Part shown: one piece after another, positions 27,143 to 64,000 of the stretch
Position numbering within the stretch: position 1 is the stretch's first letter
How the letters are laid out: the number at the start of each line of letters is the position of its first letter
Source of the DNA: Liquidambar formosana
Taxonomy: Eukaryota > Streptophyta > Magnoliopsida > Saxifragales > Altingiaceae
Reading direction: 5' to 3'
DNA length: 64,000 nt
Assembly (NCBI GenBank): GCA_039720395.1
Contig: CM077834.1
Coordinates: forward strand, 4,112,607 to 4,176,606
Notes under the pieces: generated by a model
Told to the model about the DNA's origin: nothing
The model's input: the letters and a program-made list of their open reading frames with translations, nothing else
The model's database searches: none
Translations under genes and position numbers: made by a program

Positions 27143-29275
27143 ATGTCGGGTGTCACGAATCAGGAGGAAGACAAGAAACCCACCGATCAAGCGGCTCACA
27201 TCAATCTCAAGGTCAAGGGCCAGGTCTCATCTCTCTCTCTCTCTCTCTCTCTCTGCTTGAGCTATTTCCTGTATATATTTAGGGTTTTGTTTGTATGAAT
27301 AGCAGGATGGGTTTTACCTTGGTTGTTTTTTAGGGTTTTAGTTCATGCAAATGTGTGTCTTCCTTGAAATTTCATCCTAGCTGGGGTTTGGTTGATCTTC
27401 CCCCATCCCCTCCCCCAAATTTATTTTGTTTGTTTTTTAGGGGTTAATTGTGTATAGAGTATAAGAGATTGATTGAGATTTCGCGCGATTAGCGTCCATG
27501 GTGGTTCTAAGGTTTTAGATTGGTTCATATGTGCATAAATGTTAGGGATTTGATGCTGCAACGAGTATGTATTCTTTGGTATTTCATGGAAGCTAAGGTT
27601 TATGGCTTCGATTGCAAGGATTAACTTTCGTTGAGAGAAATTTACTCAGCAGTTCCCCTTGTTTGGTTGCTGGGAAAACGTAGGAAACGACGAAAGTAAA
27701 ATCTTGCACTCGATGTTTTAATTTTTTAGTGTTTAATTGTTTATTTTTGGGTTACTTTTGTTTATTGAAAGGCGTGAAACTCAAAACTAAGCCAATTGGT
27801 TGTATTAGGCTTAGTTTAACGTGTCATTTTTTGTTTTTTGTTTTTTTTCTTTCCCTATGTTTTCTCAGCAACCAAACTGAGCTCGTTTGCATTCTGGAGA
27901 CTTAAAATTTTGCGTTTGACACTTGTCTGTAGTTGTTGTTATATCATACATGTTGCCGTGCAGTTTTCTAGTTCTCTTTTTGTTTCATAGTGTGTTCATA
28001 AATTTTCATAACGTGACTCTCCATTGTGATATTGAAAATAGTAATGCCATGGCTTTGGAAAATGCTAGATGTGTATACCTCGTTGGCATTGGAAAATGTG
28101 ACTCTTCCCGACCCTTTTTCCCAACTTTTTACCAACTCTCTCACATTGGGTAGGGCTAGATGAGTGTGGGTGTCACCCCATGTGAGTGTGTTGAGAAATT
28201 TTTTGGAAAGAATAGCACTTCTTCTTGGCATTCTTCTTCCATTTTTGGTGCCTCCAAATTCTGCTGACTTAACTTGCTTCCAATACCACTGTTTTGTAAG
28301 ACATCAGTCATTGTTTTATTGTAATCTTTTAGTCTATGACAGTTTGTTTTTATTAAATGGTTTTCAAGTACAATAATATGTAGTGTTTTCATTTATAATT
28401 ATTTAGTCATCTCATTTCCCCTATGTTGGATACATTGATCTTAAGATCACATTGCTATTTGGTTTACTACCTAAATGCTTTTAGAGGTTAAGTAGTTAAT
28501 AAAAGTTCTTTTAGAGGTTGTCTAGTTAATGTTGATAGCCTGATATATCATAAATTCATAATTATGTTTTTTTAGTTGTTATTTAATAGTGCATTGATAT
28601 ATGGTTTACTTGGTCCCTTTTAAGTGCTTCTAAAATGATTTCAAAATGATCCACGGTATCTAAGTACTAACTGCTAACTATCCCTTATGATATATGATTT
28701 GGTAAACTATTCCTTTTTCTTTTTTTTCCTTTTTTTTTTTTTTGGGGGGGGGGGGGGGGGGGCTGGGGCTATACACACATAGATAACTCACACACATTGT
28801 AAGCTAGTCAAGGTTGACTTTAGGAGTGTACAAGGTTCCACCTCTCCTTCAAGAGCTAGGCGCTTTTGGAAGTTGGGTGTGGGTTAACTTTATGGGCTCT
28901 TAGATCTTCCTTTGGTCTATGTCACATATGTGGGCTTCCTCAATTTGGTAAACTATTCTCTTGTTAGAATACAACCTTGAATGACATCAATTAGAATCCT
29001 TCTTTGCTGTGATGTTTCCATTTTGTCTCGTTGCCTTGACATATCTTTTAGCAAGATCTTAGATTTTGATAAGTTTTAGCAAGATCTTAGATTGCCATGC
29101 TGATTTCATATTTGGTTCAGAAATATCTTGCATTACCAGGCTGCTTTAAGTCACAGTGCCTTTAAATGTCTTCTGGCATATGGATATCAAGGTGGCAGGT
29201 TTGGGCCATGGTGGCCGTATTCAGTTATCCTAACCCCATATATACATACATACATATATACATACATACATATAT

Positions 29276-29333
<58 letters not shown>

Positions 29334-30764
29334 TTTCCCAAACCTCTATCTGGACTCATCAAGTCTGGATGTGGGATAAACATTGATTAGGGTGGGTACT
29401 CGTTGGGGAAAACACTATCTATAAATAAAAAATTTTCAACTAGATGTGGGACCTATCGGGCGGACACTAATAAAAATATTTCAACTAGATGTGGAGAAAG
29501 TGTTGTCACATGACAACCCAAATCTCACCATGAAACTGTTTTTTATTTTTATTTTTATTTTTAATTTGGATTCTCACTTTTCATATTTTGTTATGTGTAT
29601 ACAATTATCCATGATTTGTTGCTACTAGATAGGAGATAACCGAAACTAAACCAATGTTTTTTGGATTTGTAAAAACCAAACTGAAGTACTCTTGTTGGGT
29701 TTGAAGTTTTCACTAAAACCGAACCAAACTGAACCACAAACATGCCTAGTTGAGAGTGTTGTAGGAAGTAGAAAAATTGCATGCCTTGACTTTTTAATAT
29801 GAACAAATATTGTGGGACATCCGGAAAAGGAAATGTGCTCTAACAAAATGGGATGGAGGGAGTGGTAATAAATGATAATCTTACTCCAGTTCTAGAGACA
29901 GGGAAAAATCTCTTTGTTCATTATTCATTTGCTACTAAGGCTTACCTGTTTTTAACTATTTGATTTAAGAAGGTGGATTTGTTGAAAAATAAGCTCCAGG
30001 GACTGTTGAATGGAATCTTTTCATCATCGGTGTTGCGATTTCAAATTATTTTGTTGTCGCCTAAAGTGTAGACTAGTTTTTGATGACTTGCTTAATGCGT
30101 GATGGAGTAAGTTAGCAGGTATTCAGGAGCCACTTGTAAGGGAAATTCTTGCATCAGTTGACATGTCACTAGCTTTCAGGATTGACCTATTGCTGCTGGT
30201 TCATGTCATGTTTATTTGTCTCCCTGTCATGATTTTATGATTCTCTTCCTTGTTCATTTCTTATTCACAATCATTTAGAATGATTGAGTAAACATGTTCA
30301 TCAATAAATAAATAAATAAAATGATTGAGTAAACATGTTATGTCCCTTGCTCTAAGTAACTTCAAGGCTGGACTTTTTTGCTTGGATCTGAACATGGTAT
30401 TTTGCTTTGGTCAGTCATGATAGTTCAATCTGAACAAGTGCCAACTGCCAGCTGAGACCTATAATATTCTAAGTATTATAGAATGGTCACTGAATTTGCT
30501 CTGATATGTGGTGATATGATCATCACTTTGAAGATGAGGAATTATTCTTGAATCAAATATTAGTGTGAACATAATGCTGTAGAGTTTCACGTGACTAATT
30601 TGGCAATGTTTTGTAGGATGGGAATGAAGTGTTTTTCAGGATTAAGAGAAGCACTCAACTGAAGAAGCTGATGACTGCTTATTGTGATCGACAGTCTGTG
30701 GAGCTCAACTCTATTGCCTTCTTGTTTGACGGTCGTCGTTTACGAGCAGAGCAGACTCCAGATG

Positions 30765-30810
<46 letters not shown>

Positions 30811-30918
30811 TAGAGTTGGATAGTTTCTTACTTTAAAATTTTGTTGCTACAGCTGGAAATGGAGGATGGGGATGAGATAGATGCTATGCTGCACCAGACG
30901 GGTGGTGCTGTTGCCTAA
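27143..30918 (+). CDS. SUMO: Small ubiquitin-related modifier (SUMO)
   Basis: A ubiquitin-fold protein conjugated to lysines of target proteins, mostly nuclear (family knowledge). Three exons: 27143-27223 (27 aa), 30617-30766 (50 aa) and 30853-30918 (21 aa plus TAA), total 98 aa. The N-terminus is [13 protein letters not shown]. The ubiquitin fold includes [20 protein letters not shown] and [14 protein letters not shown]. The C-terminus is HQTGGAVA, so protease cleavage after Gly-Gly would remove AVA. Introns are 3393 and 86 bp. Both donors are weak by plant standards (CAG|GTCTCA, GAG|GTCTCT) and run into CT repeats. The frame stays open upstream of the ATG, but without another in-frame ATG. 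Intron 1 contains the left breakpoint of the tandem duplication. It closely resembles the canonical plant SUMO1/2 type. Confidence 0.97.
29281..29331. repeat. (TA)n microsatellite in SUMO intron 1
   Basis: A TA run preceded by TACATA repeats from about 29240. The counterpart in copy 2 is at about 45747-45783 and has a TAAA prefix instead. Confidence 0.95.
30768..30807. repeat. (CT)n microsatellite at the SUMO intron 2 donor
   Basis: About 20 CT units begin immediately after the GT of intron 2. In copy 2 the same position has a shorter, interrupted run. Confidence 0.95.
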
Positions 30919-33037
30919 TGAATGGGTTTGGTAGGTGGTATCTTTAGTAGAAGTATAAGTAAATGATATTGTGGGATTTTTTAATAGACAATGTCTGGAG
31001 CTGTATCATTAATTAGTGAGCCACTCGTGGTCAAACTATGCGGTTTGCAAATGTCACTTGTTAGTAGCTTACAATTATGATCTTTGTATTGAAGCTTGCT
31101 TTTGGTTTGGAGAGTGATTTGAGGAATCGTTGCTTGTTAACACTTTCCTATTTGTATCTGGTTTCTGCAGTTGGGGTTTGTCTTTAGTCATTTATGCTTT
31201 TCCAATATTTTCAGTTGGGAACTGTATTCTCTATTCTCCACTCTCGGGGAAAAGAATATAAAAAATGGAAATCTAGCTTACGACTATTGTCCATAGTTGT
31301 AACCACTGGAAATTTCCTTTTATTTTCATGTTGTCTTAATCTGGAAGGGGTTGGGTGGGGTTGGTCGATTTTTGTGGTAGTATGAAATCCAATTTCCCCC
31401 AGAAGGAAGAAAGTGTGATGCCCTTCGTGAAAGACTCCAAATGGGAAGCTTCCACGGGATTGAATCAAGCATCCAAATATCCATTGCTGTACTGTACTGC
31501 TCTGTCCAAGCCGATTGAAATTTGAATTCCTTGTCTCTCGAGTTACTCTTTTTTCCCTTTTCATTAAACTTTCCACCTTGATTTGTGAGACAGATAACTG
31601 GCCAAATCAAGGTCTAATGGAGGACAATGCTTACATTGCTGGTGTTGCCCTCTGCTTCATTCAATGTGATATGGATCACGGTAAGAGTATATTTACCAAA
31701 TCTACTTATTAAATGACCATTTGAGAATAAGACGAGAGCTAGTTATTACGTCCAGTATAACCATTTGGTCATGTGCACTGCAGACCAAAAACTGCACTCT
31801 TTTTTACTCAAATCTAATTTGAAAACCTCCAATAAAACTATTTTATAGAAATACCTACCAACATCGTGGTTGTCTGCTTCAGCGTCTTCCCATTTTAAAT
31901 GCCTTAAGACTATCAAGAAATTAGCCAACGACTCCACCAAATACTTGTGCTTGAGGCAGTCTGGTCTAAGAGGGGTTTCAGCCTATATGGCCTTGGGATG
32001 AATGGAACAAAGATCACAATGCACAATGTTCCCCGCACGTCTGTGGCATAGAACTGACCCTTCAAAGAATATGATATCTATGTATGCGACTCATGGGGTA
32101 TTATCGACGGTTTTCCCATCTCTCATCACCTGTCTAGGAGGAAGCCAATTTATGCTGATTACAATGGTTAACTAGGATTATGCAGCTAGGATCAAATGGA
32201 TTGGATGATGATATCGCCCGCTTTATATAGCCTTCTGAAAAGTACTTGTAGGTGGAAGTTGGATTTGGGTTCTTGAGAAGGGATTTAAGAGGTAAATTTT
32301 ATTAGGGGAAGTGCAATCAATAAACTTAGAATCCACCTGAAGAAACCTTAAATCCAGAAGGAAAATAAGAGAAACCCTGGATTTTATTAATATTGAACCG
32401 AGTCTACCTTTTAGCTTAGGTTTTCACTTATAGGGGACTAACCATAATTCTTTCAAAAAAAAAAAAAAAAAATGAGTAGAAAAAAGAAAAAATGGAAAAA
32501 ATTAAACACAGTAATAGACTATAAAAATTAATAATATTTAATCCTAGAATAAAGGCTGGATCGACTAGGAGCATTTCAGCATTCTATAATGAAAGTCATT
32601 CTCAAAATAAAACTTTCTTGAAATGGCAAAATTGCAATTCTGGAAATCTGACGTTGCAATTCTACTGATTGCAATCAAAAAGTGAAAATTCCATGGAAAA
32701 GTTTTGATTTCCACATTTCCGTTCAATCTTTCGGATTTTGTGCGATTCTCAGTTTGAAGCTCCTGATATTTATAAGTGCTGTTTTGACTTGAAATGTTAC
32801 AAACTTTCAATAAAAAGTTTGGAACTACAATCAAACTACCCTTATTCAAATTTGAATCAAACCACGCTGAATCGAACCAGATTAACCGAATTAGTTTGAT
32901 TTTCAGTTTTATCCTAACCAAGTTGCACCTCTTTTAATTTGTCATCGAATTAGTTTTAATTATAGTGCTAGGTTTTGAAAAAAAAAAATAAATAAATAAA
33001 AGAAGGTGGAAAAGGGAGAGAACAAAAAACTTTCATT

Positions 33038-33420
33038 TGAAAGCGGCCTTACTAACACCGCTTTCAGTATAAGAAAAAATTCCTGTCAAGATAAGGTGTG
33101 AAAAGTCGTAGTCTTTCAGTCTTTCACTCCCACTCTCTCACCCTTGACATTCTCTCTCTCTCAACCATCGACGCCGGCGTACACGATCCCGACGAATCCG
33201 ACACCGACGAAGGCCATCATCGACGGATTCGATGCCGGCGTACACCCCTTCTACTGCCGTACTCTCTGGCCGGCGCCGCCTACCTCTCATACCACCGTTC
33301 TCTCTATGCTCTTCTCTCCTCGCGAACATTTCCGCCGTCGTCGCTCGCGAAAGTTTCCGCCGTCGTCGCTCGTCGTTGTCAATAACTGCCGCTATTGACT
33401 ATTCGCCCTTTAAAGCGTCT
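33038..33420. other. GC-rich patch with an upstream hairpin, unassigned
   Basis: TGAAAGCGG...CCGCTTTCA (33038-33066) forms a 9-bp stem. A CT-rich stretch follows, then about 290 bp of GC-rich sequence (33130-33420) with open frames on both strands. Composition resembles the 5' end of a plant gene or captured gene DNA. The copy at 50246-50585 lacks one 25-bp direct repeat (CCGCCGTCGTCGCTCGCGAA type) found here. I recognise no protein. Confidence 0.4.
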
Positions 33421-34147
33421 CTCTCCTGGTATTTACAAATCCAAACTATTTTCCTATGAATCTCTATGATAGTCTAATCTACACTAAAAGGTCCATGTAT
33501 AAATATGTGTCTACACACTCATAAATTGCCAGCAAACCCTAATATATTAAACTGTTTGGTGATGTGTACCAGGTGTTTGATTAAATTCCCCATAGCCATC
33601 ATATCATTAAAGTGATTCTAACTTTCTTCAAGAGTTTCGAATCTTTTGGTTAGTATTTAATGCGTTGGTGATGTAGTTCTGCCTTAACCTGAATCAAAAT
33701 GTGGGTCGCATTCTGTCTTGTTCAGGATCCCAAACAACAAGAATGTGGGTCAATTGTGATGAAAAAATGAGTGGTATTTTGTTGGGTAAAGCTTTGTGGT
33801 TGAGATAGCTGAACTTCCTGCAATGATCAAACTTCATTTTCCCAAAGAGCCAAATTAATTTTGCATTACTTGAGGTTATGGTACCTATCTTCCTCAGAAG
33901 TAATCTTTCCCTTTGGATGCCCCTTTAGAAATTGTTATTGCTTTATATTCTGGCATATTGATTGATGAGTATTTGCGTATTTGAGTTTGTGACTGGTTTG
34001 AATTGGTTGAGCTGTTAATGCCATCTCCCCCCTTGTCTCGAGTATACTTTCCTAGGATCCTCATCCAATATTGGTAAGTCAGTATAGCATGCAAGGGGAA
34101 CTCGTGATACGATTCTTGAGTAAAAATCTAACCTTGTCATGAGATAT

Positions 34148-34192
34148 GAGATGGATGCTGTGCTGCACCAAATGGGTGGTGCTGTTGCCTAG
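34148..34192 (+). pseudogene. SUMO exon 3 remnant
   Basis: 14 codons plus stop read EMDAVLHQMGGAVA, matching the SUMO C-terminus ([14 protein letters not shown]). The SUMO 3' flank continues, with a gap, to about 34790 (compare 30919-31340). An older local duplication of the SUMO 3' end, carried again in copy 2 at 51296-51340. Confidence 0.85.
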
Positions 34193-36572
34193 TGAATGGG
34201 TTTGGTAGGTGGTACTCAATCATATTAAATTTAGTCCATAACCATTATTTGATTTTCAAATAAACCAACTCATAGTTGGTTTTAAAAAAATTGTGTTTAT
34301 GCTTTATTTTTAGAACAAAGCTGAATTGTATGGTAGGAAAAAGAAACTTACCAAACAGTGTAAAATCAAAATTGATTAGATTTATCCTCAACTGCTGGTT
34401 AGATTTTTTGGTTTGCCAAACAGCCCCTAAGTAAATAATATTGTAGGATTTGTTAATGGACAATGTCTGGAGGTGTATCCTTAATTAGTCAGCCAATCGG
34501 GGTTTGCAAATGTCACTGGTTGGTAGCTTACAATTATGATCTTTGTATTGAAGCTCACTCTTTGTCTGGAAAGTGATTTGAGGAATAGTTTCTTTTTGAC
34601 ACCTTCCTATTCGTATCCATTTTCTGCGGTTGGGAATTGTCTTTCTATCATTTTTGGTTTTCCAGTAATTTTCAACTTGTCTTACGCCCAATGGCACTGC
34701 ATTCTCTATTCCCCATTCTTGAGGAAAAGAAAATGGAAAATGGAAAATTTGCAACTATTATCCCAACTATGGTTGTAACGATGTCGTTGTAATTCTCATC
34801 ATGGTCTATTTTGTCATTTCACTTAATTGATAAAATAGGCAGAGAAGAAGAGACTAACATTGTTGTAGGCCTCATCAGTTCTAAGAAATCATTTTCGTTT
34901 CGTTTGGTGGACCATAGGCATGGAATTTATGAGTAGAGGAGGTCATGGATTTCTTTTGAGTAATCTACACTCCTAAGTCGTAATTGGTGTGGTCATTCGA
35001 GTCACAATAACAGAACAGTACGAAGCCAATTTTTCTCGCGAATTGCGCAATATTTTCCAACTGGCGGGACATAGACCAAGACGGCGGGACATAGACCAAG
35101 ACCACACTTGAGGATGGTTTGTTGACAATCGATAGAATTTATCCCTATCCCTAACCCTACCTTAATATCTACAAATGTGTATTTATGTTTTTTATGACTT
35201 TGAACTAGAGATCACTTACCTAACAAATGATGTAAAATGCCATTAGACTTCCATGTCATTGGCTCAAAAAAAGAAGTTTGGTTAAATATTTTTATGCAAT
35301 TTAAAGAATTAAATTCCCACATCTCTCTGCCCCGCCTTGCCTTCCAAAAATAAAGCTTTTTTTTTTTTTTTTTGGGACCAAACGATAGGAGAATACACAC
35401 ACCCATGTAGAGTCGAAACTAAGATTTTTGCAAACCCCACATGTCAATTGACCGGGATGAGATATGCCATTAGACCCAAAGTCCATTGGCTTCCAAAAAA
35501 AGGAAGTTTAGGAGAATATTTTTATGCAATTTGAAGGTTAGGGACTTAGGGTGATAAGTTGTTCTTGATCCTTACCATTTAAGAGAGTGAAATTTAATTT
35601 ATCTATTGTTAAATTTATTTGCTATGACGTTTTAAATTTGCCTATGAAGAATTGAAGATGAGGGGAAATGGTAGTGACAAGGAGAGTTTGGGTGAACTAG
35701 CCTACATTTGATCAGGTCGGGGAGGGGATTTAATCTGGTGTGCGTAAGTTGGCCTAAGATACCCCTACCGCAATACCAAAAAAAATAAAAATAAAAACTT
35801 ATAATTAATGCTCAGTACAATTAAAACCCACAACTTATATATCCACTGTCCAAATCAAATTAAAAGAAATATATATCATCAAAATTGAAAGCTGGTAGCC
35901 TTAAGTTGTCCAATGCATGTGTTGCGGCCCATATGGTCGATTCATATGGTGGAAGGCACGGTGCCCGGTGGTCGGTGGGTGATGCTAAGGGCACTAACAC
36001 CATAGGCTTCCATGGAAGCTACCACTAATTAAGTTGCCTATGCCATTATCTTTTTCTTGAACCCAATAACACCATGAAGATGCTTTGTGATTGGTTGCAG
36101 CCCATGTGGTGCTTTTGAAGCTCTGGTGCCACTTTTGTGTGCTTCCTTGTGGGAAGTCAAGGCAGTGGTTGCAACTCAGATTTAATGGAGACTTCTGGGA
36201 CGATATTCTAACTCGTGGACTGAAACAGAATACATGCTAGCTCGCGCTAGATGATGGTCCATGGAAGAGAGGGAGAGAGAGAGAGAGTCTCACAGGTAGA
36301 TTAGTGTAGAAAATGGTATTGTAATCAGCAAAGAGGCTAATGGATTAACTGGGTAAAAAAAAAAAAATGTTACTTGACTAATTGCTAAATAAGTTTTTTA
36401 TGCTTAACTAATGGCCAAATTTCCCCCATAAAAAGGGAAATAATACATGTATTCATAACAAATAACCCACTTAAAAAATGATAAATAGCCTTAAATAGTG
36501 ACAATGGTTGTTATTTTAAAATAATATAAACCCAAGATTCACGACATGCAAAACTTCAACATTAAATATCTT

Positions 36573-39500
36573 TTATCGAGCCTCTAATAGCGTAATGGTG
36601 ATCTCATTGTTTGAACTTGGTTCACGCTTGCTTGATGAGGAATTAGTTTCAACTAGATTCCTTTCAGTGAAAAAACCAGGTTGTTTAGGTAGAGGCAAGA
36701 CACCTTCACTACCCAACATTAGAACCACTGATGACATGCTAGGCCTATCTTCCGGATTATGTTGTACACATAATAGACCCACATGGATTGACCGCAACAC
36801 TTCAGATAGATTGTCTAAGTTCCCCATTGATGCATCTATCAGTTCCAAGGACCTATCCTCTATATGTAGTCTCCATGCCTGAAAATTTTGAAATTAAATC
36901 ATGTTATTAATTGTAAGTCCGACATAGAGAAAGAAGTTACATTAAGAAAAACACTTACATGTCCAATAAGGTTAAGATGGTGGTCCGGATGATAGAAGCC
37001 TCTGTTTCTCTTCCCATTTACTATTTCTAGCAATAAAACACCAAAACTAAACACATCGGATTTTATAGAGTACAGTCCATCAATTACGTACTCAGGGGAC
37101 ATATATCCACTGCATGAAACCAATAAACAAGTAATTAAACACATTGATAAGCCATGAAATTGGATTAAAAAAAACTAACATAAGGGGTACCCACTATGTT
37201 CCAACCACTTTATTTGTGTTCGCAGCAGTTTCATTTCCACCAAAACTCCTAGCCATGCCAAAGTCAGATATTTTTGGGTTCAACTCATTGTCTAGTAAAA
37301 TATTGCTTGCTTTGACATCTCTGTGAATTATCCTTAATCTGGAATCTCGATGAAGATAAAGAAGCCCTTGAGCAATTCCATTGATGATATGGAAGCGCTT
37401 AGACCAATCTAGTAGAATGCTTCGTGTGTGATCTGCTCAAGTTTTTTGTCCAAATAATTCCATTCATCAGCCATTTAAATTTTTGAATATATTTGGAAAA
37501 CGATTTGATGAGTCCATAATTAACAGAGAATCGTGGAAAAGAATTCTTTTTTTTTTTTTTTCTAAGACGTGGAAAATAATTCATGTGACATGTGTAACAA
37601 CAATGAAATCAAAACTACTCCCGCAGCAACCCCTGTTAAATTGGATAAGAATACCGACAGAGATCCCCTTTTTCTTCGATTCATGCGTCACTGATACGTC
37701 GTGCTGCCTAAAATTTCCCCTGATCAGGGTCTTTGGTCAAAACATCACACTCTTAAAGAAAGTTTTGGAGCTTGTATGCTGAAAAGAATACTGGATTGTG
37801 TCTAATCTATTGAACTAAGTATGCAATTATGGGAGAGATTCATACCAAAAATAAAGAAGTCCAAGCTCTTGTTAGGCATGAATTCATAAATCAACATCTT
37901 TTCATCTTCTTGAATACAACACCCCAAAAGTTTCACTAGATTTCGATGTTGAAGTCTGACAATGTGAATAACTTCATTTTTGAACTCGTTAAGTCCTTGG
38001 CTAGAATTCTTTGATAATTTCTTCACAGCTATTTCTCGCCCGTCTTCCAACACACCCTAAAAAATTATCACCCCATAATATATATATGGCTAGAGTTTGG
38101 ATTTTCTTTTGCAAAATATAAAAAAAAAAAAGAAAAAAAAGAAAAAAATGTTGAATTTTGCATACAACGTACTGTAAAATGTCACCCACCTTTTTAAATG
38201 GTTACAATTTACATATGCAAATGGGCCCTTTGCTGAAGTGTGGCAAAGTGTATTATATCATTTCTTACAAAAGATGGAAAAGAAAATAACACCTTTATAA
38301 TCATAGGTCTGTGTCATTTGTTGGAATAATGTTGAAGGGCGAAGTAGTGATGATGAAAAACTACCTGGCGCCTAGAGTTGGTACGATGCAAACCGGGTCA
38401 TATTGAATTAGAGTAAAGTTTTTACCTTGTAGACAGGTCCAAAACCACCCTCTCCAAGTTTATTGTTAATTGAAAAGTTATTGGTTGCGTTAGCTAATGT
38501 AGCCATGTCAAATGATGGTAACTCTAGATCTTCCTTGTGGCTCTCACGGGGATAAACTCTCTCTTTATTGCGTCCCACTTTTCCTGCAAAGTAAGAATTA
38601 ATGTTGATGAAAATGAATGTAGAGGAACATTCTTGAGTTAGTCTATTCCATTGCAGAAACTTAATTTCCCAGAAAAATAGAAGTGAATGACTTACGTGCT
38701 CTATTGTGCTTCTAAAATCAAAACATAAAAGACCAAAGCTAGGCCCAGGAGCAACATTGCTGCAGACAACACAGCGATGACTATGATTCGTACTCGTTCC
38801 CTTACATTAGAAGTAGCATTTATCTTCCCACTGTCAACTTGATCTTGAACAAGGCAATTAAAATCAGGAAAACTAGCAGTTAACGTTGGAAAGCAGTTAA
38901 CCAGTCCCCCACCCCCCCCCCCCCAAAAAAAACCCCTTTTTTTCTTGTAAAAAAACCTTTTTACAAGACATTTACTCAAGTTGAGGATTAATTTCATACC
39001 TAGTTTTGATGCAGCCATCCTAATGTAGATGTCTTGCCCATTCTCAGTAAACTCTCTAATATCAATTAGTTCACCAAACCAAAGCAAACACCCTGTTCCT
39101 CTCTTGATATCTAAATTTGCAAAAGCTGTACAAGTGCAATTCTTGGAGCAAACAATCTTGCATTCCTCAAAGTTCATGCTGTTATTAAGCCAGGAACCTT
39201 GCGTGTCTGGCGCTTTCATCCCAGAGTACTTATTAAACCCATCTCCATTCCGGCAATCCAATGGTGTCTTTCTCACACACCCATTTGACCAATCCATCAT
39301 GTCCCATTCTTTTGGGAATTTAGGCACAAATCCTTTCAGACACCCACATACAGGAGAGTTAATGATTTTACAGTTGCCGTATGCTCCACACAATGCATAA
39401 TGGTCGCAGTTATCCATTGGTACAGTTGAGTAAGGGACCCAACCTTTGGTTCGATCAATCCACGTGAGGCGCTGCACTACTCCACTCTGATTCACCACCA

Positions 39501-40275
39501 ACCTTGAAACAACTGAGCTATTCAGAAGCTCATAACTGTAATATATCTCTTCTTGAGTATAAACCAAACCAAATTTATAAACTGGGTTTGGTTTTAATTC
39601 AGGAAAGCCACTGAACCGGATACCATTCCATGGTCCAGATCGGAATTGCACTGCAGAACCCCTTCTCAAAATTAATTCTGGAAATCCACGGGGATCAAGC
39701 TCATACGAAAAATCACCACGAGAAGGATCATTAGCGCTCTTCCAAGGTGAAAAGTAACGATTCAAACCCGTCACCAAGTTCCTCCCAAACTTCATAGTAG
39801 GCAGAAATGTGTCACCAGGATAATCAAAACTCTGCCATAGGAAATTATTATCATCCCCATCTTTCATAACAACAAGATTCCCCGACTCCAAAAGTTTTGC
39901 GACTGGAATCTGCGCTGCCAATCTCGATGAGTTGGAAGACCAAATGATGCCCTCATTATGACTGAAAAGCAGGAGAATTCCTCCGTCAGTGACCTTCAAT
40001 ACACCTGATTTATCCACCAGGGGCATTTCTCTGTTGGCAACCCATACTACTGTCCCGCTAGATATTTTCTTATACCATATTCCCAAGTATCGTTTCGTGG
40101 TATTACCTGGGCTGAAGAATCCTAGCTCAAAGCTTCCATCGGCTGAAACTATGGTCTCGCCGTCTCTTATGGGTCGGGAAAGAGTTATGGTATTTGTTGC
40201 AGTGGACATTATCAAGGTGGGTAACAAAGAGAAGCAGAAAACAAGTATGGTATAGACTTCCATTGATAGATTCAT
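36573..40275 (-). pseudogene. S-domain (G-type lectin) receptor-like Ser/Thr kinase, copy 1, frameshifted
   Basis: Seven exons: 40275-39000, 38843-38696, 38583-38426, 38056-37846, 37432-37195, 37109-36959 and 36878-36573, the usual S-domain kinase structure (exons 3-6 are 158, 211, 238 and 151 bp). Exon 1 encodes the signal peptide, B-lectin, S-locus glycoprotein/EGF-like and PAN domains. Exon 2 encodes the membrane span. Exons 3-7 encode the kinase ([28 protein letters not shown]). Compared with the intact copy at 54474-58167, exon 2 has one extra base in an A-run near 38713-38717. It shifts the frame to a TAG at 38701-38703. The predicted product is 472 aa: ectodomain plus membrane anchor, no kinase. 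The kinase also has Val for the usual Leu in HRDLK and Val for Ala in SPEYA. A read-through frame to 38701 that ignores the intron is not the real product. Confidence 0.88.
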
Positions 40276-40329
40276 GATTCTAAGTTTTTTTTAAAAGGAA
40301 AACGAAGGATGGAAAGGAAAAACTAAAAG

Positions 40330-40356
40330 ACTTGAGGCCTCATGAGTTCCTCAAGT
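40330..40356 (-). other. Potential leader hairpin of the receptor kinase
   Basis: ACTTGAGG...CCTCAAGT gives an 8-bp stem with an 11-nt loop, just downstream of the inferred TATA box, so near the start of the mRNA. Conserved in copy 2 at 58222-58248. Confidence 0.4.
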
Positions 40357-40361
40357 AAACC

Positions 40362-40379
40362 TTTATATTCAGGAGTCAA
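40362..40379 (-). promoter_or_regulatory. TATA box and W-box of receptor kinase copy 1
   Basis: Minus strand: TATAAA at 40367-40362, preceded by a W-box core TTGACT at 40379-40374, about 90 bp upstream of the start codon. W-boxes bind WRKY factors, which would fit a defence-type receptor. Prediction from motifs only. Confidence 0.45.
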
Positions 40380-40698
40380 CATAGTTTTTTACCAGTCTTC
40401 CAAACATGCCTTTCAATTGTGGACCAAAGGGCATGGAGACAAATCAGTATGAGATATTTGCTATTTATCATTTTCTTTTGAATAGTCCATACTCGTAATT
40501 AAAGGTATTATTGGTCGTCTAGGTAGGAGGAACCAGTGAGAGTCGATGCCGTGGGCTTGGGGGACTCATAAGAAATGAGTGGCGGTCATGCATGTGTAAG
40601 AAAGCAAGACCAACTCTGAAAAGTATTTGTCACACGCTGAGTGAAGAAACAATGTACTCCGCAGTTTTAATTACAGCTATGAAGAATTCATATCTATA

Positions 40699-41176
40699 TC
40701 TATATTACCTATAAAAAGGTGAATCTCAGAAAAATTTTTGAATGACTAATGTACCTTTATTTTTTAAAAAAAAAATACTTATCTATCATTCCTTTAATTG
40801 AGAGACATAGTAAACATTCTTATCATTTGGCAACAAATTAAATGAAAGTTAGATTTTAACTCAAACTCTTAACAAATTAAAGTTAGATTTTTACTCAAAT
40901 TCTTTTTCCTGAAGCAATTATCAAGTTACATGGAAATACATATGAATATAAACTCTTTAAATATTCCGTTTTATGAAAAAAAAAAATTCTGAATATATAT
41001 CTAAAGAGTTTTTAATCTTTCGTTGACAATTTTGATTATTAAAAAAAAAAAAATGCACTTTTGAATTTTAAACTTTATCTTTTATGAAAAAATATAAAAT
41101 CTTTATGTATTTATTATTTTGTATAACTAATATTATTTAAAAATATTCACGTGCAACGCACGTATGCTATATCTAA
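40699..41176 (+). mobile_element. Non-autonomous Helitron H5, about 478 bp
   Basis: 5' TCTATATTACCTATAAAAAG. 3' hairpin CACGTGCAACGCACGT, then ATGCTATATCTAA and host T at 41177. Its 3' half matches 63490-63898. In copy 2 the same element is split near its 5' end by Helitron H6. Confidence 0.85.
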
Positions 41177-51000: not shown

Positions 51001-51295
51001 CAAAGTAATTTTGCATTACTTGAGGTTATGGTACCTATCTTCCTCAGGAGTAATCTTTCCCTTTGGATGCCCCTTTAGAAATTGTTGTTGCTTTATATTC
51101 TGGCATATTGATTGATGAGTATTTGCGTATTTGAGTTTGTGACTGGTTTGAATTAGTTGAGCTGTTAATGCCATTTCCCCCCTTGTTTCGAATATACTTT
51201 CCTAGGATCCTCATCCAATATTGGTATGTCAGTAGCGTGCGAGGGGTACTCGTGATACGATTCTTGAGTAAAAATCTAAGACTGTCATGAGATAT

Positions 51296-51340
51296 GAGAT
51301 GGATGCCATGCTGCACCAAATGGGTGGTGCTGTTGCCTAG
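51296..51340 (+). pseudogene. SUMO exon 3 remnant, copy 2
   Basis: Counterpart of 34148-34192, reading EMDAMLHQMGGAVA and stop. Carried along by the 16.5-kb duplication. Confidence 0.85.
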
Positions 51341-52212
51341 TGGGTTTGGTAGGTGGTACTGCAATAGACCAAGTTCAGTTCATAATTATTATCTGATTTT
51401 TAAATAAACGAACTCATAGTTGGTATGAAAAAAATTGTTTTTATGTATTATTTTTAGAACAAAGCTAAACTGTATAGTAGGAAAAAGAAACTTACCAAAC
51501 AGTTTAAAATCAAAATTGGATAGATTTATCCTTTGACTAGATTTTTAGGTTTGTTAGACGATCGTAAGTAAATAATATTGTGGGATTTATTAATGGACAA
51601 TGTCTGGAGCTAATTAGTCAGCCAATCGCGGTTTGCAAATGTCACTCGTTGGTAGTTTACAATTATGATCTTTGTATTGAAGCTCACTCTTTGTCTGGAA
51701 AGTGATTGGAGGAACAGTTGCTTTTTGACACCTTCCTATTCGCATCCATTTTCTGCGGTTGGGAATTGTCTTTCTATCATTTTTGGTTTTCCAGTAATTT
51801 TCAACTTGTCGTACGCCCAATGGCACTGCATTCTCTATTCCCCATTCTTGAGGAAAAGAAAATTTAGAATGGAAAATTTGCAACTATTATCCCAACTATG
51901 GTCGTAACGATGTCGTTGTAACTCTCATCATGGTGTATTTTGCCATTTCACTTGATTGATAAAATAGGCAGAGAAGAATAGACTAACATTATTGTAGGCC
52001 TCATCAGTTCTAAGAAATCATTTTCCTTTCCGTTTGGTGGACCATAGGCATGGAATTTATGAGTAGAGGAGGTCATGGATTTCTTTTGAGTAATCTAAAC
52101 TCCTAAGTCCTAATTGGTGTAGCCATTCAAGTCATAATAACAGAACAGTACGAAGCCAATTTTTCTCACGAACTGCGCAATACTTTCCAACTGGCGGGAC
52201 ATAGACCAAGAC

Positions 52213-52990
52213 TAGCGATGTTAACGGGGCCGGGTTTGGTACGGCAAGTCCTCTCTCACCCCTAAACCATTGGAATTTTTTCCGTCCCAACCTTGTCCCA
52301 AACTCACTTTGAATTTAACATCTAATTCTCATTCCCATCCCATTTAAATTTGAAAATCCTATTCCCGCCCCACCCCGCCTAGCCCAGCCCAACCCAATCT
52401 CATTTATACTTTGTACGATAAGATAGGACGGGAAAGGATAAGACAAAAAATTGATTACGTTCTATAGCATAAATTTGTTTTTAAGAAAAAATAATTGTTT
52501 ATTTTACCATATTTATTACAAGAAATTTTTTAAATTCATTCATTAAATTCATCAAACTACTTTCAATTTTCCTATATGAAAGATTAACAAAACATAACAT
52601 AACAACTAAAAAAAGTCAGTAATAACAATAATTTTTTTCAATAAAAGTGTTACAACTTCCAACAAAATGGAATAAAACAAAGAGACAAGAAAAAGAAACA
52701 TGATCCTAACAAAGCCAAAAAGTAATATAACAAATTAGAGGTATTTATATATTAAATAGCATAAGTGTATTATTATATATTAATAGAGGTATAACAGTAA
52801 AAGAGAGTAGATAATTGGAGAGGGTTCGGGACGGGTTTTTAATGAAAATCCCAACCCCGCCCCAAACCTTAACAAGTTCTTAAAAAAATCCCAAACCCGT
52901 CCCTACCCCATTAAATAATATCCCAAACCCTTCCCACTTAAAGCGGGACGGGGTGGACCCTTGAAAAAACCCATCCCATTTACATCCCTA
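52213..52990. mobile_element. Non-autonomous hAT element, 778 bp
   Basis: Target-site duplication ACCAAGAC (52205-52212) and ACCAGGAC (52991-52998), one mismatch. Ends TAGCGATGTTAACGGGG and complement of TAGGGATGTAAATGGG. Copy 1 has the empty site at about 35075-35102, where a 20-bp stretch containing ACCAAGAC is duplicated instead. Subterminal CCCCGCCC/GGGACGGG repeats, no transposase. Confidence 0.92.
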
Positions 52991-54473
52991 ACCAGGACCA
53001 CTCTTGACGATGATTTGTTGACAATCGATAGAATTTATCCCTATCCCCAACCCTGACCTTACCTAAATATCTACAAATGTGTATTTACGTTCTTTATAAG
53101 CTGGAACCAAAGATCACTTACCTAACAAATGATGTAAAATGCCATTAGACTTTCATGTCATTGGCTCAAAAACAAGAAGTTTAGTTAAATATTTTTATGC
53201 AATTTAAAGAATTAAATTCCCACATCTCTCTGCCCTGCCTTGCCTTGCCTTCCAAAAATAAAGATTTTTTTTTTTTTTTTTTTTGGCCAAACGATAAGAG
53301 AATACACATACCCAGGCAAAGTCGAAACCAAAACTTCTGCAAACCCCACATGTCAATTGGCCATGATGAGACATGCCATCAGATCCAAAGTCCATTGGCT
53401 TCCAAAAAATGAAGTTTAGGAGAACATTTTTATTGCAATTTGAAGGTTAGGGACTTAGGGTGATAAGTTGTTCTTGATCCTTACCATTTAGGAGAGTGAA
53501 ATTTAATTTATCCATTGTTAAATTTATTTGCTATGAAGTTTTAAATTTGCCTATGAAGAATTGAAGATGAGAGGAAATGGTAGTAACAAGGAGAGTTTGG
53601 GTAAACTAGCCTGCCTTTGATCGGGCAGGGGAGCGGATTTAGTCTGGTGCGCATAAGTTGGCCTAGGATACTCCTACCACAATACCAAAAAAAATATAAA
53701 TAATAAATAATAAATAAAAACTTATAATTAATGCTCAGTGCAATTAAAACCCACAATTTATATATCCACTCTCCAAATCAAATTAAAAGAAATATATTTC
53801 ATCAAAATTGAAAACTGGTAGCCTTAAGTTGTCCAATGCATGTGTTGCGGCCCATATGGTGGAAAACACGGCGGGTGATGCTAAGGGCACCAACACCATC
53901 GGCTTCCATGAAAGCTACCACTAATTAAGTTGCCGATGCCATTATCTTTTTCTTGAACCCAAAAACATCATGAAGATGATTTGTGATTGGTTGCAGCCCA
54001 TGTAGTGCTTTTGAAGTTCTGGTGCCACTTTTGTGTGCATCCTTGTGGGAAGTCGAGGCAGTGGTTGCAACTCAGATTTAATGGAGACTTCTGGGACGAT
54101 ATGCTAACTCGTGGACTGAAACAGAATACATGCTAGCTCGCGCTAGATGATGGTCCATGGAAGAGAGGGAGAGAGAGAGAGAGAGTCTCACAGGTAGATT
54201 AGTGTAGAAAATTGTACTTTAGTGAGAAAAGAGGCTAATGGATTAACTGGGTAAAAAAAAAAAAAGGTTACTTGACTAATTGCTAAATAAGTTTTATTTG
54301 CTTAACTAATGGCCAAATCTCCCTCTAAAAGGGGAAATAATACATGTATTCATAACAAATAACCCACTTAAAAAATGATAAATAGCCTTAAATAGTGACA
54401 ATGGTACGTTGTTATTTTAAAATAATATAAACCCAAGGTTCTCAACATGCAAAACTTCAACATTAAATATCTT

Positions 54474-57400
54474 TTATCGAGCCTCTAATAGCGTAATGGT
54501 GATCTCATTGTTTGAACTTGGTTCACGCTTGCCTGATGAGGAATTAGTTTCAACTAGATTTCTTTCAGTGAAAAAACCAGGTTGTTTAGGCAGAGGCAAG
54601 ACACCCTCACTACCCAACATCAGAACCACTGATGACATGCTAGGCCTATCTTCCGGATTTCGTTGTACACATAATAGAGCCACATGGATTGATCGCAACA
54701 CTTCAGATAAATTGTCTAAGTTCCCCATTGATGCATCTATCAGTTCCAAAGACCTATCCTCTATATGTAGTCTCCATGCCTGAAAATTTTGAAATTAAAT
54801 CATGTTGTTAATTGTAAGACCAACATAGAGAAATAAGTAATATTAAGAAAAACACTTACATGTCCAATAAGGTTAAGATGGTGGTCTGGATGATAGAAGC
54901 CTCTGTTTCTCTTCCCATTTACTACTTCTAGCAATAAAACACCAAAACTAAACACATCGGATTTTATAGAGTACAGTCCATCAATTGCATACTCAGGGGA
55001 CATATATCCACTACATGAAACCAATAAACAAGTAATTAAACACATTGATAAGCCATGAAATTAGATTTTTTTTTAAAAAAAACCAACATTATAAGGGGTA
55101 CCCACTATGTTCCAACCACTTTATTTGTATTTGCAGCAATTTCATTTCCACCAAAACTCCTAGCCATGCCAAAGTCAGATATTTTTGGGTTAAACTCATT
55201 GTCTAGTAAAATATTGCTTGCTTTGAGATCTCTGTGAATTATCCTTAATCGGGAATCTCGATGAAGATAAAGAAGCCCTTGAGCAATTCCATTGATGATG
55301 TGAAAACGTTTAGACCAATCTAGTAGAACGCTTCGTGTGTGATCTGCTCATGTTTTTTGCCCAAATAATTCCATTCATCAGCTAATTAAATTTTTGAATA
55401 TATTTGGAAAACGATTTGATGAGTCCATAACTAACAGAGAATCATGGAAAAGAATTCATGTGACATGTGTAACAATGAAATCAAAGCTACTCCCGCGGCA
55501 ACCCCTGTTAAATTGGATAAGAATACCAACAGAGGTTCCCCTGTTTCTTCGATTCATGCGTCACTGATACGTCATGTTGCCTAAAATTTCCCCTAATCAG
55601 GGTCTTCGATCAAAACATCACACTAGTAAAGAAAGTTTTGGAGCTTGTACGTTGAAAAGAACACTGGATTGTGTCTAATCTATTGAACTAAGTATGCAAT
55701 TATGGGAGAGATTCATACCAAAAATAAAGAAGTCCAAACTCTTGTTAGGCATGAGTTCATAGATCAATATCTTTTCATCTTCTTGAATGCAGCACCCCAA
55801 AAGTTTCACTAGATTTCGATGTTGAAGTTTGGCAATGTGAATAACTTCATTTTTGAACTCGTTAAGTCCTTGGTTAGAATTCTTTGATAACCTCTTCACA
55901 GCTATTTCTCGCCCGTCTTCCAACACACCCTAAAAAATTATCACCCCATAATATATATATAGCTAGAGTTTCAATTTTCTTTTGCAAAATCCAAAAAAAA
56001 AAAAGAAAAAAAAGAAAAAAAGGAAGTTGAATTTTGCATACAACTGTAAAATGTCACCCACCTTTTTAAATGGTTACAATTTACATATGCAAATGGGCCA
56101 TTTGCTAAAGTTTGGCAAGGTGTATTATATTATTTCTTATAAAAGAAGGAAAAGAAAATAACACTTTTATAATCCTAGGTCTGTGTCATTTGTTGGAATA
56201 ATGTTGAAGGGGGATGATGAAAAAATACCTGGTGCTTGGAGTTGGTACCATGCAAACTGGGTCACATTGAATTAGAGTAAAGTGCTTACCTTGTAGACAG
56301 GTCCAAAACCACCCTCTCCAAGCTTATTGTTAATTGAAAAGTTATTGGTTGCATTAGCTAATGTAGCCATGTCAAATGATGGTAACTCTAGATCTTCCCT
56401 TTGGCTCTCACTGGGATAACCTCTCTCTTTATTGCGTCCCACTTTTCCTGCAAAGTAGTAATTAATGCTGATGAAGATGAGCGAGAAGAAACATTCTTGA
56501 GTTAGTCTATTCCATTGCAGAAATTTAATTTCCCAGAAAAATAAAAGTGAATGACTTACGTGCTCTATTGTGCTTCTTAATCAAAACATAAAAGACCAAA
56601 GCTAGGCCCAGGAGCAGCATTGCTGCAGACAACACAGCGATGACTATGATTCGCACTCGTTCCCTCACATTAGAAGTAGCATTTATCTTCCCACTGTCAC
56701 CTTGATCTTGAACAAGGCAATTAAAATCAAGAAAACTAGCAGTTACGTTGGCAAGTAGTTAACCATTCCCCCCCCCCCTCTCTCTTTTTTAAAAAAAAAA
56801 GAAAAAAAACCATTTTTTAAGATAATAATAAAAAATTAAAAAAAAAAACATTTTACAAGACATTTACTCAGGTTGAGGATTAATTTCATACCTAGTTCTG
56901 ATGCAGCCATCCTAATGTAGATGTCTTGCCCATTTTCAGTAAACTCTCTAATATCAATTAGGTCACCAAACCATAGCAAACACCCTGTTCCTCTCTTGAT
57001 ATCTAAATTTGCGAAAGCTGTACAAGTGCAATTGTTGGAGCAAACAATCTTGCATTCCTCAAGGTTCATGCTATTATTAAACCAGGAACCCTGCGTGTCT
57101 GGCGGTTTCATCCCAGGGTACTTATTAAACCCATCTCCATTCTGGCAATCCAATGGTGTCTTTCTCACACACCCATTTGACCAATCCATCATGTCCCATT
57201 CTTTTGGGATTTTAGGCACAAACCCTTTCAGACACCCACATGTAGGAGAGTTATTGATTTTACAGTTGCCGTATGCTCCACACAATGCATAATGGTCGCA
57301 GTCATCCATTGGTTTAGCTAAGTAAAGGACCCAACCTTTGGTTCGATCAATCCACGTGAAGCGCTGCGCTATTCCACTCGGAGTCACCACCACCCTTGAA

Positions 57401-58167
57401 ACAATTGAGCTATTCACAAGCTCATAACTGTAATATATCTCTTCTTGAGAATAAACCAAATCATATTTATAAACTGGGTTTGGTCTCATTTCAGGAAAGC
57501 CACTGAACCGGATACCATTCCATGGTCCAGATCGGAGTTGCACTGTTGAACCCCTGCTCAAAAGTAATTCTGGAAATCCACGGGGATTAAGCCCATACGA
57601 AAAATCACCACGAGAAGGATCATCAGCGCTCTTCCAAGATGATATGTAACGATTCAAACCCGTCACCAAGTTCCTCCTAAGCTTCATGGTAGGCAGTAAT
57701 GTGTCACCAGGATAATCAAAACTCTGCCATAGGAAATTATTATCATCCCCATCTTTCATAACAACAAGATTCCCTGACTCCAAAAGCTTTGCGACCGGAA
57801 TCTGCGCTGCCAATCTCGATGAGTTGGAAGACCAAATGATGCTCTCGTTATGATTGAGAAGCAGGAGAATTCCTCTGTTAGTGACCTTCAATACACCTGA
57901 TTTATCCACCAGGGGCATTTCTCTGTTGGCAACCCATACTACTGTCCCGCTAGATATTTTCTTATACCATATTCCCAAGTATCGTTTCGTGGTATTACCT
58001 GGGCTGAAGAATCCTAGCTCAAAGCTTCCATCGGCTGAAACTATGGTCTCGCCGTCTCTTATGGGTCGGGAAAGAGTTATGGTATTTGTTGCAGTGGACA
58101 TTATCAAGGTGGGTAACAAAGAGAAGCAGAAAACAAGTATGGTATAGACTTCCATTGATAGATTCAT
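54474..58167 (-). CDS. S-domain (G-type lectin) receptor-like Ser/Thr kinase, copy 2, intact
   Basis: A plasma-membrane receptor kinase of the SRK/SD1 family: extracellular sensing and cytoplasmic Ser/Thr phosphorylation. Seven exons: 58167-56892, 56706-56560, 56447-56290, 55929-55719, 55343-55106, 55010-54860 and 54779-54474, total 2487 nt, 828 aa. Domains: signal peptide (about 1-24), B-lectin (about 27-155), S-locus glycoprotein/EGF-like (about 205-330), PAN (about 335-420), membrane span (about 445-465, [20 protein letters not shown]), kinase (about 510-790) and a short tail. Kinase motifs: [14 protein letters not shown] with Lys about 539, HRDLKASN with Asp about 636, DFG Asp about 654, SPEYA. 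All introns are GT-AG and the frame is intact. The start at 58167 (MNLSMEVY) is used; a second Met lies four codons in. Ligand unknown. Confidence 0.94.
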
Positions 58168-58253
58168 GATTCTAAGTTTTTTTTAAAAGGAAAACGAAGG
58201 ATGGAAAGGAAAAACTAAAAGACTTGAGGCCTCATGAGTTCCTCAAGTAAACC

Positions 58254-58271
58254 TTTATATTCAGGAGTCAA
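58254..58271 (-). promoter_or_regulatory. TATA box and W-box of receptor kinase copy 2
   Basis: TATAAA at 58259-58254 and TTGACT at 58271-58266, identical in spacing to copy 1. A leader hairpin at 58222-58248 is also shared. The promoter and first 96 codons look identical between the two genes. Confidence 0.45.
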
Positions 58272-58596
58272 CATAGTTTTTTACCAGTCTTCCAAACATG
58301 CCTTTCAATTGAGGACCAAAGGGCATGGAGACAAATCAGTATGAGATATTTGCTATTTATCATTTTCTTTTGAATAGTCCATACTCGTAATTAAAGGTAT
58401 TATTGGTCGTCTAGGTAGGAGGAACCAGTGATAGTCGATGCCGTGGGCTTGGGGGACTCATAAGAAATGAGTTGCGGTCATGCATGTGTAAGAAAGCAAG
58501 ACCAACTCTGAAAAGTATTTGTCACATGCTGAGCGAAGAAACAATGTACTCCGCAGTTTTAATTATAGCTATGAAGAATTCATATCTATATTTATA

Positions 58597-62500: not shown

Positions 62501-63225
62501 TTGCTATTCATCAAGCTACAAAAATCTGAAAAAATGAAAAGAGAGAGAGAGATGAGTGTGTGTGACAAATGAGGTAGATAGAGAGAGAGAGAGAGAGAGG
62601 GACAAAAGAGAGAAACAGAGAAACAAAGAGATTTGTTTTATGTGTGTGTGGTGTCTGTGTGTGTAAGAGATTAAAAAAATCTCTCCACTGATTTTTTTAT
62701 GTGTGTGTGTGTGCATCTGTGTGCGTGCGTGTGCGTAATAAAATTGGAGAGATTTTTTTTTGTGTGTGTGTGTGTGCGTCTATGTGCGTGCGTGTGCGCG
62801 CGCGTGCGTGTGTGTAATAAAATTGGAGAGATTTTTTTTATTTGGTTCACACTTGTGTTTGTGCGTCTGTGTGTGAGAAACAGAGAGAGAGAAAATAGAG
62901 AAAGAGAGATTTTTTTATGTTGCCTAATGAGACAAACTGAACCAATAGGTTTTTGTATTTAATAATAGTATTTTATTTTCGCAGTGCTTTCATACAGTCG
63001 TTCATAATATATAGTGAGTTATGTCAAATATTTCACATCATTTTACATTAAAATAGTATTATCTGTCAATTGAATTTTATTATTTTGAATGCATATTATT
63101 ACGTAAGATTGATAATCCTTTTAAATGCATACTGTTACATAAGATTGATAATGCAATATAGGTTTAATGCAATATATGACTGTTTTGTTTTGCCTATTTT
63201 TTTTACTTTTTGTCTTCATATTTCT
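58597..63225. repeat. Higher-order tandem repeat, three 1.5-kb units
   Basis: Units start at 58597, 60166 and 61731 (lengths 1569, 1565 and about 1495 bp), each beginning with the Helitron 5' end and closing with GCCTATTTTTTTTACTTTTT. Each unit contains two sub-repeats of about 450 bp, starting at ATATGGTACTGTTAGAAAAG (near 58863/59326, 60456/60900 and 61948/62401). Each sub-repeat carries (GA)n, then several (GT)n/(GC)n blocks separated by ATAAAATTGGAGAGAT. Open frames here are Cys-Val-rich low complexity, not genes. Confidence 0.95.
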
Positions 63226-63898
63226 ATTCGAAAATGAATTGAATTTTTGGATTGTATTCGAAAAGCTGTTCAAAGTATCAAGGTACATTATTTCTTCCAA
63301 AATATTTTAATGCAGATGATCATTTTTTTATATGCAATGAAGGCTATTGATATTTCTCCTATTTGTAAATGGCATTTTTTTCCGCATACTGTTACATAAT
63401 AGGATTAATGCAATATAAAATTGTTACAATTTGCCTATCTTTTTACTTTTTGTCTTTATCTATAAAAGGCTGAATCTCCCTTATTTTTTTTTTATAAAAA
63501 AATACATATCTACCATCCCTTTAATTAAAATACATAGTTAACATTCTTATCATTACCAAATGAAAGTTAGATTTTAACTAAAACTCTTAACAAATAAAAA
63601 TTAGATTCTTACTCAAATTCTTTTTCCTAGAGCAACTATATATGAAGTTGCATGATAATATATATGAATATAAACTCTTTAAATATTCTGTTTTATGAAG
63701 GAAAAAAAAATTATGAATGTATATTTAAAGTGTTTTTAATTTTTCGTTGACAATTTTGATTATTAAAAAAAAAATGTACTTTTGAATTTTAAACTTTATC
63801 TTTTATGAAAAAAATATAAAATCTTTATTTATTTATTATTTTGTATAACTAATATTATTTAAAAATATTCACGTGCAACGCACGTGTGCAATATCTAG
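58597..63898 (+). mobile_element. Chimeric Helitron H6, 5302 bp
   Basis: Begins TCTATACTACCTATAAAAAG (H1-type 5' end) and ends with hairpin CACGTGCAACGCACGTG, then TGCAATATCTAG (H5-type 3' end). It sits between A58596 and T63899. In copy 1 the flanks are contiguous (A40704|T40705, ...CTATA|TTACCTATAAAAAGG), an exact empty site showing A|T insertion without target duplication. The body is three 1.5-kb repeats plus a unique 240-bp stretch and an H5-like tail. No Rep/helicase is present, so it must be moved in trans. Confidence 0.93.
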
Positions 63899-64000
63899 TT
63901 ACCTATAAAAAGGTGAATCTTAGAAAAACTTATGAATGACTAATATACCTTTATTTAAAATATAAAAAAAAATATCTATCATTCTTTTAATTGAAAGAGA
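63899..64000 (+). mobile_element. Interrupted H5 Helitron, continuing past the window
   Basis: TTACCTATAAAAAGGTGAATCTTAG and following bases match H5 from base 7 onward (40705...). This is the H5 counterpart of copy 2, separated from its first bases by H6. It shows that the duplication continues beyond the right edge. Confidence 0.85.

What the first reader, a model, noticed from the sequence alone, without database searches (positions are those of the whole stretch)
28674..64000. A 16.5-kb tandem duplication with breakpoints inside two genes, predicting a full GH9 gene beyond the window
Copy 1 starts in SUMO intron 1. Copy 2 starts at 45183 with the same intron sequence and lacks SUMO exon 1. 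The sequence just before 45183 is a GH9 gene that lacks its 5' exons. One event explains both truncations: a unit running from SUMO intron 1 to inside the GH9 gene was duplicated head-to-tail, leaving the intact SUMO at the left end and, by prediction, the intact GH9 gene at the right end. The intermediate truncated GH9 exon and SUMO fragment are byproducts meeting at the junction.
Basis: partly seen in the sequence, partly recalled or inferred. Interest (0 to 1): 0.75.

Follow-up and report, generated by a model that had tools for sequence, protein, structure and literature searches.

The report
Tandem duplication broken inside two genes
A stretch of plant chromosome holding a receptor kinase and most of a SUMO gene was copied head-to-tail, leaving a SUMO copy without its start and a piece of a cellulase-like gene at the seam; this is an ordinary kind of duplication, and whether the whole cellulase gene lies further right could not be seen.

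Summary
Copy 1 (from 28675) and copy 2 (from 45183) share a sharp left edge in SUMO intron 1 and are collinear to about 40690/58590: 94.3% identity over 11,847 aligned bases, 56 gaps. Copy 2 lacks SUMO exon 1. Left of 45183 lies only the last exon of a minus-strand GH9 gene (endoglucanase 11 type); three full-length GH9 probes match nothing else of GH9 in the window.

The right end is not shown. The 41.2-45.2 kb segment has no second copy before 64000, only six short repeat matches. Copy 2 runs into a Helitron-like array, and the window ends inside a Helitron start resembling copy 1 near 40805. The predicted GH9 gene is neither confirmed nor refuted. With no further insertions its second last exon should lie near 67.1-67.7 kb, and the other exons beyond about 68.4 kb. 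The genome search did not complete (11 attempts).

Two hAT-like insertions found only in copy 2, with 8-base target duplications, support two separately evolving copies. One head-to-tail duplication remains the simplest explanation: a new example of a known, ordinary process.

The parts
27143..27223 (+). SUMO exon 1 (intact gene, left of copy 1)
   Evidence: tblastn with P0179 residues 1-27, 100% identical; GT donor follows
28675..40690 (.). Copy 1 of the duplicated segment, as far as collinear similarity is shown
   Evidence: blastn and MAFFT against copy 2, 94.3% identity over 11,847 aligned bases of 28675-40763/45183-58661; the last 70-80 bases of that alignment are Helitron 5' ends of two different groups
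30617..30918 (+). SUMO exons 2 (30617-30766) and 3 (30853-30918), copy 1
   Evidence: tblastn; ends read in the sequence
36576..40263 (-). G-type lectin S-receptor-like kinase gene, copy 1
   Evidence: tblastn blocks match residues 1-423 and 471-823 of Vitis P0253 (823 aa); Pfam B_lectin, S_locus_glycop, PAN_2 on the first exon
40699..41176 (+). Helitron-like element in copy 1 (3' hairpin then CTAA|T; 5' end approximate)
   Evidence: alignment with 25505-25736 and 63484-63897; 5' ends compared; end letters
43858..44499 (-). Last exon of a GH9 gene (endoglucanase 11 type), about 204-214 residues (3' end of coding approximate), no upstream exons in the window
   Evidence: Pfam PF00759, E 4.7e-51 for ORF 43810-44526; tblastn 71-78% to P0121, P0122, P0179
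45182..45183 (.). Junction: GH9 intron joined to SUMO intron 1 sequence
   Evidence: homology to 28675 onward starts exactly at 45183
45183..58590 (.). Copy 2 of the duplicated segment, with two hAT-like insertions
45953..46638 (.). hAT-like insertion in copy 2, CAGGGGTG end, 8-base target duplication GGAGAAAG; clean empty site in copy 1
47775..48066 (+). SUMO exons 2 (47775-47924) and 3 (48001-48066) of copy 2, without exon 1
   Evidence: tblastn; five differences from copy 1, four scored silent and the fifth silent by reading the codon
52213..52990 (.). Second hAT-like insertion in copy 2, target duplication ACCAAGAC/ACCAGGAC (one mismatch)
54477..58155 (-). Receptor kinase gene, copy 2
   Evidence: tblastn blocks match residues 1-423 and 471-823 of P0253
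58590..64000 (+). Array of Helitron-like ends and a 1.5-kb repeat in copy 2; the window ends inside it

Best explanation
In this plant lineage one head-to-tail duplication copied a segment running from SUMO intron 1, through a G-type lectin receptor kinase gene, to the last intron of a minus-strand endoglucanase-11 (GH9) gene. Shown: two copies, the sharp left edge, the GH9-intron/SUMO-intron junction, and the two truncations. Inferred: that the right edge of the unit is the GH9 intron, so that copy 2 ends with another GH9 last exon joined to the remaining GH9 exons (expected near 67-68 kb and beyond). Later changes, partly inferred: copy 2 gained two hAT-like elements; Helitron-like elements beside the kinase promoter differ between the copies; the kinase ectodomains changed in protein more than the kinase parts; and the orphan GH9 exon drifted.
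For: Sharp edge and 94.3% collinear copies. Junction between two introns, each keeping its downstream exon with a good splice acceptor. No other GH9 exon in the window with three full-length probes. Two insertions absent from copy 1, with 8-base target duplications, one perfect and one with a mismatch. The GH9 exon differs at 8 of 107 positions that at least 90% of 80 relatives (P0001-P0080) share, median about 2, rank 4 of 81 by fraction. Against P0121-P0236 at a 95% threshold it differs at 5 of 87, median 1, and 3 of 117 sequences including itself reach 5. By my arithmetic, neutral drift at half the non-coding divergence of 0.063 predicts about 7-8 changes at those 107 positions. The last 100 or so bases of the window match the start of the copy-1 Helitron (84% over 114 columns; 13 of 100 aligned bases differ), so copy 2 may continue toward the 41.2 kb segment.
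Against: No second copy of 41180-45182 in the window. The copies differ in the Helitron region, so the right part cannot be aligned. The GH9 exon is still open over more than 200 codons; by my estimate a neutral exon of this age would stay free of stops and frameshifts about 1 time in 10. The conserved-site test is modest: three of 80 relatives deviate more, two of 116 deviate as much, and the exon's tree branch ranks only 13 of 117. In Malus a gene model puts SUMO upstream of GH9 on the same strand (P0179), unlike the tail-to-tail order here, so the ancestral order is uncertain.
Confidence: 0.66

Rival explanations
1. The copied segment ends near the Helitron (about 41.2 kb) and was inserted into the GH9 intron. 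The exon at 43.9-44.5 kb is then the gene's only last exon, separated from its upstream exons by at least 18.8 kb of insert.
For: Similarity between copies is demonstrated only up to the Helitron-like elements; such elements sit at that edge in both copies.
Against: The GH9 exon deviates at conserved sites, unexpected for the only working last exon. An insertion landing 4 kb from its source in the same orientation needs extra assumptions. The window ends inside the array, so the apparent end may be only the window's edge.
Confidence: 0.17
2. The GH9 exon is an older, unrelated gene fragment that happened to lie at the right edge of the unit; no GH9 gene follows.
For: Fragments and relics are common here: an older SUMO 3' relic is present in both copies, and several transposon-like elements are present.
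Against: No GH9 exon lies between this exon and the junction 0.68 kb away, as expected if the junction cut its intron; its reading frame is intact.
Confidence: 0.1
3. The two copies are two haplotypes of one locus joined in error by the assembler.
For: About 6% divergence with transposon indels can occur between haplotypes in outbred plants (general knowledge); false duplications in assemblies are a known problem (PMC9516828, seen in the listing only).
Against: The join lies inside two introns with no shared sequence beyond a few bases, and the window holds no N; an overlap assembler has little to join there.
Confidence: 0.07

Closest known systems
Tandem (head-to-tail) segmental duplication with breakpoints inside genes (general knowledge)
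   Same: Adjacent direct copies, sharp junction, one truncated gene on each side of the junction, the gene between the breakpoints copied whole.
   Different: Nothing different in kind; the right end of the second copy is not in view.
Helitron-linked tandem gene copies in Populus (KCS locus, PMC13253262; abstract and section 20 read)
   Same: Helitron-like ends (hairpin, CTAG/CTAA) beside each kinase copy.
   Different: The junction itself (45183) shows no Helitron end that I recognised by eye, so the Helitrons look like later differences or neighbours rather than the cause.

Membership tests
Tandem segmental duplication | two adjacent direct copies with collinear similarity | tested here: met
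   28675-40763 against 45183-58661, 94.3% identity
Tandem segmental duplication | junction joins the right end of the unit to its left end | tested here: inconclusive
   left end shown; right end inferred only, since 41180-45182 has no second copy before 64000
Tandem segmental duplication | original right flank continues after copy 2 | not testable with these tools
   window ends at 64000; the genome search did not complete
GH9 endoglucanase 11 gene | complete GH9 catalytic domain (444 profile positions) | tested here: not met
   only positions 286-443; no other GH9 exon in the window
SUMO gene, copy 2 | all coding exons | tested here: not met
   exon 1 missing; a stop codon lies in frame directly upstream of exon 2, and the first in-frame Met is residue 19 of exon 2
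Helitron (elements ending at 41176 and 63898) | 3' hairpin followed by CTRR, then T | tested here: met
   CACGTGCAACGCACGTG then CTAG|T at 63895-63899; ACGTGCAACGCACGT then CTAA|T at 41173-41177 (read by eye; motif recalled)
Helitron (elements ending at 41176 and 63898) | Rep/helicase protein of the autonomous element | not tested
   elements are short; none sought elsewhere
hAT transposon (two inserts in copy 2) | 8-base target-site duplication | tested here: met
   GGAGAAAG on both sides; ACCAAGAC/ACCAGGAC with one mismatch
hAT transposon (two inserts in copy 2) | related transposase or an autonomous relative | not tested
   not searched

The most novel reading that the evidence does not exclude
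The SUMO copy without exon 1 is still used: a new first exon near the junction replaces the lost one and makes a SUMO with a different N-terminus, born from a duplication that cut the gene in its first intron. All five differences between the copies in exons 2 and 3 are silent.
Probability: 0.06. Interest if true: 0.45.

Novelty: new member of a known kind. Interest (0 to 1): 0.2.

Why it matters
It is a clear case of how one duplication copies a receptor kinase whole while cutting the genes at its two ends, and it gives a precise, cheap prediction for the adjoining sequence. It does not change what is known about such events. The greater protein change in the lectin part than in the kinase part of the two receptors fits ordinary receptor diversification.

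Tried and rejected

Looking for the intact GH9 gene of the same species among predicted proteins: the best listed relative is 80% identical to the exon (Tetracentron sinense P0121; 120 of 2351 hits listed), so neither the species nor its intact gene was recognised there.

Reading 40757-41175 against 63484-63897 as the right end of the duplication: rejected as proof, because a related 3' end also occurs at 25505-25736, so dispersed Helitron copies give such matches by themselves. The apparent collinearity of 40690-40763 with 58588-58661 was also dropped: the 5' ends belong to two groups (27 of 98 aligned bases differ).

Selection on the truncated SUMO: all five differences are silent, but by my arithmetic only about two protein-changing differences would be expected at the local divergence of 2-4% (windows), so this proves little.

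Rfam at gathering thresholds and a tRNA scan of the window found nothing. No paper in the held library has 'endoglucanase 11', 'SUMO' and 'tandem' together. Of PMC13253262 I read the outline with abstract and section 20; every other paper was seen in search listings only.

Full report
What was checked. The window is plant DNA (its GH9, receptor-kinase and SUMO matches are to plants). Self-comparison shows two direct copies: 28675-40763 against 45183-58661. A global alignment gives 94.3% identity over 11,847 aligned bases with 56 gaps. K2P distance is 0.059 overall, 0.063 outside the exons I masked (9,295 bases) and 0.042 in the left third (3,600 bases). Homology begins exactly at 28675 and 45183. 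The bases just before are unrelated apart from a GCTAA seen a few bases upstream on both sides, a hint of microhomology at most.

Genes at the edges. The intact SUMO gene has exon 1 at 27143-27223, exon 2 at 30617-30766 and exon 3 at 30853-30918. Copy 2 has exons 2 and 3 (47775-47924 and 48001-48066) and no exon 1. In copy 2 a stop codon stands in frame directly before exon 2, as it also does in copy 1's intron, and the first in-frame Met is residue 19 of exon 2, so copy 2 cannot make a normal SUMO without a new first exon. Left of the junction, 44499 to about 43858 on the minus strand is the last exon of a GH9 gene: Pfam positions 286-443 of 444, good acceptor site. Named relatives are called endoglucanase 11 or GH9B8. 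Three full-length GH9 proteins found no other GH9 exon in the window.

The genes in between. Both copies hold a G-type lectin S-receptor-like kinase (36576-40263 and 54477-58155); tblastn blocks match residues 1-423 and 471-823 of an 823-residue Vitis protein, and residues 424-470 were not matched by it. In the first exon (421 codons) dN is 0.051 and dS 0.049 between copies; the five later blocks together have 19.5 protein-changing and 23.5 silent differences, against 49 and 13 in the first exon (Fisher p = 0.0005 on rounded counts). The contrast comes partly from a lower silent rate in the first exon. One codon in the third block is a stop in both copies; it lies in the first codons of the tblastn match (IF*G), which I read as intron sequence drawn into the match.

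Two real copies. Copy 2 holds two insertions absent from copy 1, with hAT-like ends and 8-base target duplications (GGAGAAAG; ACCAAGAC/ACCAGGAC). The first site is clean in copy 1. At the second, copy 1 carries a 20-base local repeat.

The right end. Collinear similarity stops near 40690/58590. There copy 1 has a Helitron-like element ending at 41176 (hairpin, CTAA|T). Copy 2 has an array: three units of about 1.5 kb whose 5' ends belong to another group, then an element of the copy-1 kind ending at 63898 (hairpin, CTAG|T), then a further Helitron start that runs to the window end. That last start differs from the copy-1 element at 13 of 100 aligned bases, the first unit at 27 of 98. The window therefore ends at a point like 40805 of copy 1. 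The segment 41180-45182 has no second copy before 64000; six short matches (24-78 bases) to kinase-upstream repeats and A/T runs were seen. If nothing more is inserted, the second GH9 last exon should lie at about 67082-67693 and the breakpoint at about 68377.

State of the GH9 exon. Against 80 relatives it deviates at 8 of 107 positions conserved in at least 90% of them, median about 2, rank 4 of 81. Against 116 further relatives at a 95% threshold it deviates at 5 of 87, median 1; 3 of 117 including itself reach that number. Its branch in a FastTree tree ranks 13 of 117, its nearest relative there being Tetracentron P0121. Half of the non-coding divergence would, by my arithmetic, give 7-8 changes at the 107 sites under no selection. 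This fits an exon freed at the time of the duplication. Against it, the frame is still open, which I estimate would happen about 1 time in 10.

Older neighbourhood. A Malus baccata gene model joins SUMO and endoglucanase 11 on one strand (P0179), and its first 27 residues are identical to the window's SUMO exon 1. This suggests that the two genes are old neighbours, though in another orientation. Several species list an endoglucanase-11 hit and a kinase hit on contigs of identical length (for example P0122 and P0238, P0153 and P0315, P0200 and P0333), which I take as the same contig; noticed by eye, not counted.

Verdict. The event is an ordinary tandem duplication.

Noticed in passing
58590-64000: Helitron-like array upstream of the copy-2 kinase: three units of about 1.5 kb rich in TG/AG repeats, two groups of 5' ends, elements joined end to end.
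   Followed up: partly
34148-34746 and 51296-51875: Older SUMO relic (end of exon 3 plus 3' region, 75-93% similar) present in both copies, so an earlier SUMO duplication seems to have preceded this one.
   Followed up: partly
20935-21006: A possible further SUMO-like exon 1 on the plus strand: weak protein match (50% over 24 residues, E 0.28), DNA 77% alike to 27165-27252.
   Followed up: no
36576-40263 and 54477-58155: Two receptor kinase copies whose first (lectin ectodomain) exon has dN/dS about 1 against about 0.2 in the later blocks (my arithmetic).
   Followed up: partly
42110-43463: Element of about 1.35 kb with 85-base terminal inverted repeats, 97.6% alike, between the Helitron and the GH9 exon; looks Mutator-like, from recall only.
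   Followed up: no
11802-18234: Two 303-base direct repeats, 99% identical, 6130 apart, around reading frames that look copia-like (family named from recall, no search run): probably a young LTR retrotransposon.
   Followed up: no
16332-16998: Tandem array of an 80-base unit between those two repeats.
   Followed up: no
701-2134: GH17 family enzyme with an X8 domain on the minus strand.
   Followed up: no
P0179 (Malus baccata): Gene model joining a SUMO and a complete endoglucanase 11 on one strand, cluster of 16 sequences: the two genes look like neighbours elsewhere.
   Followed up: partly
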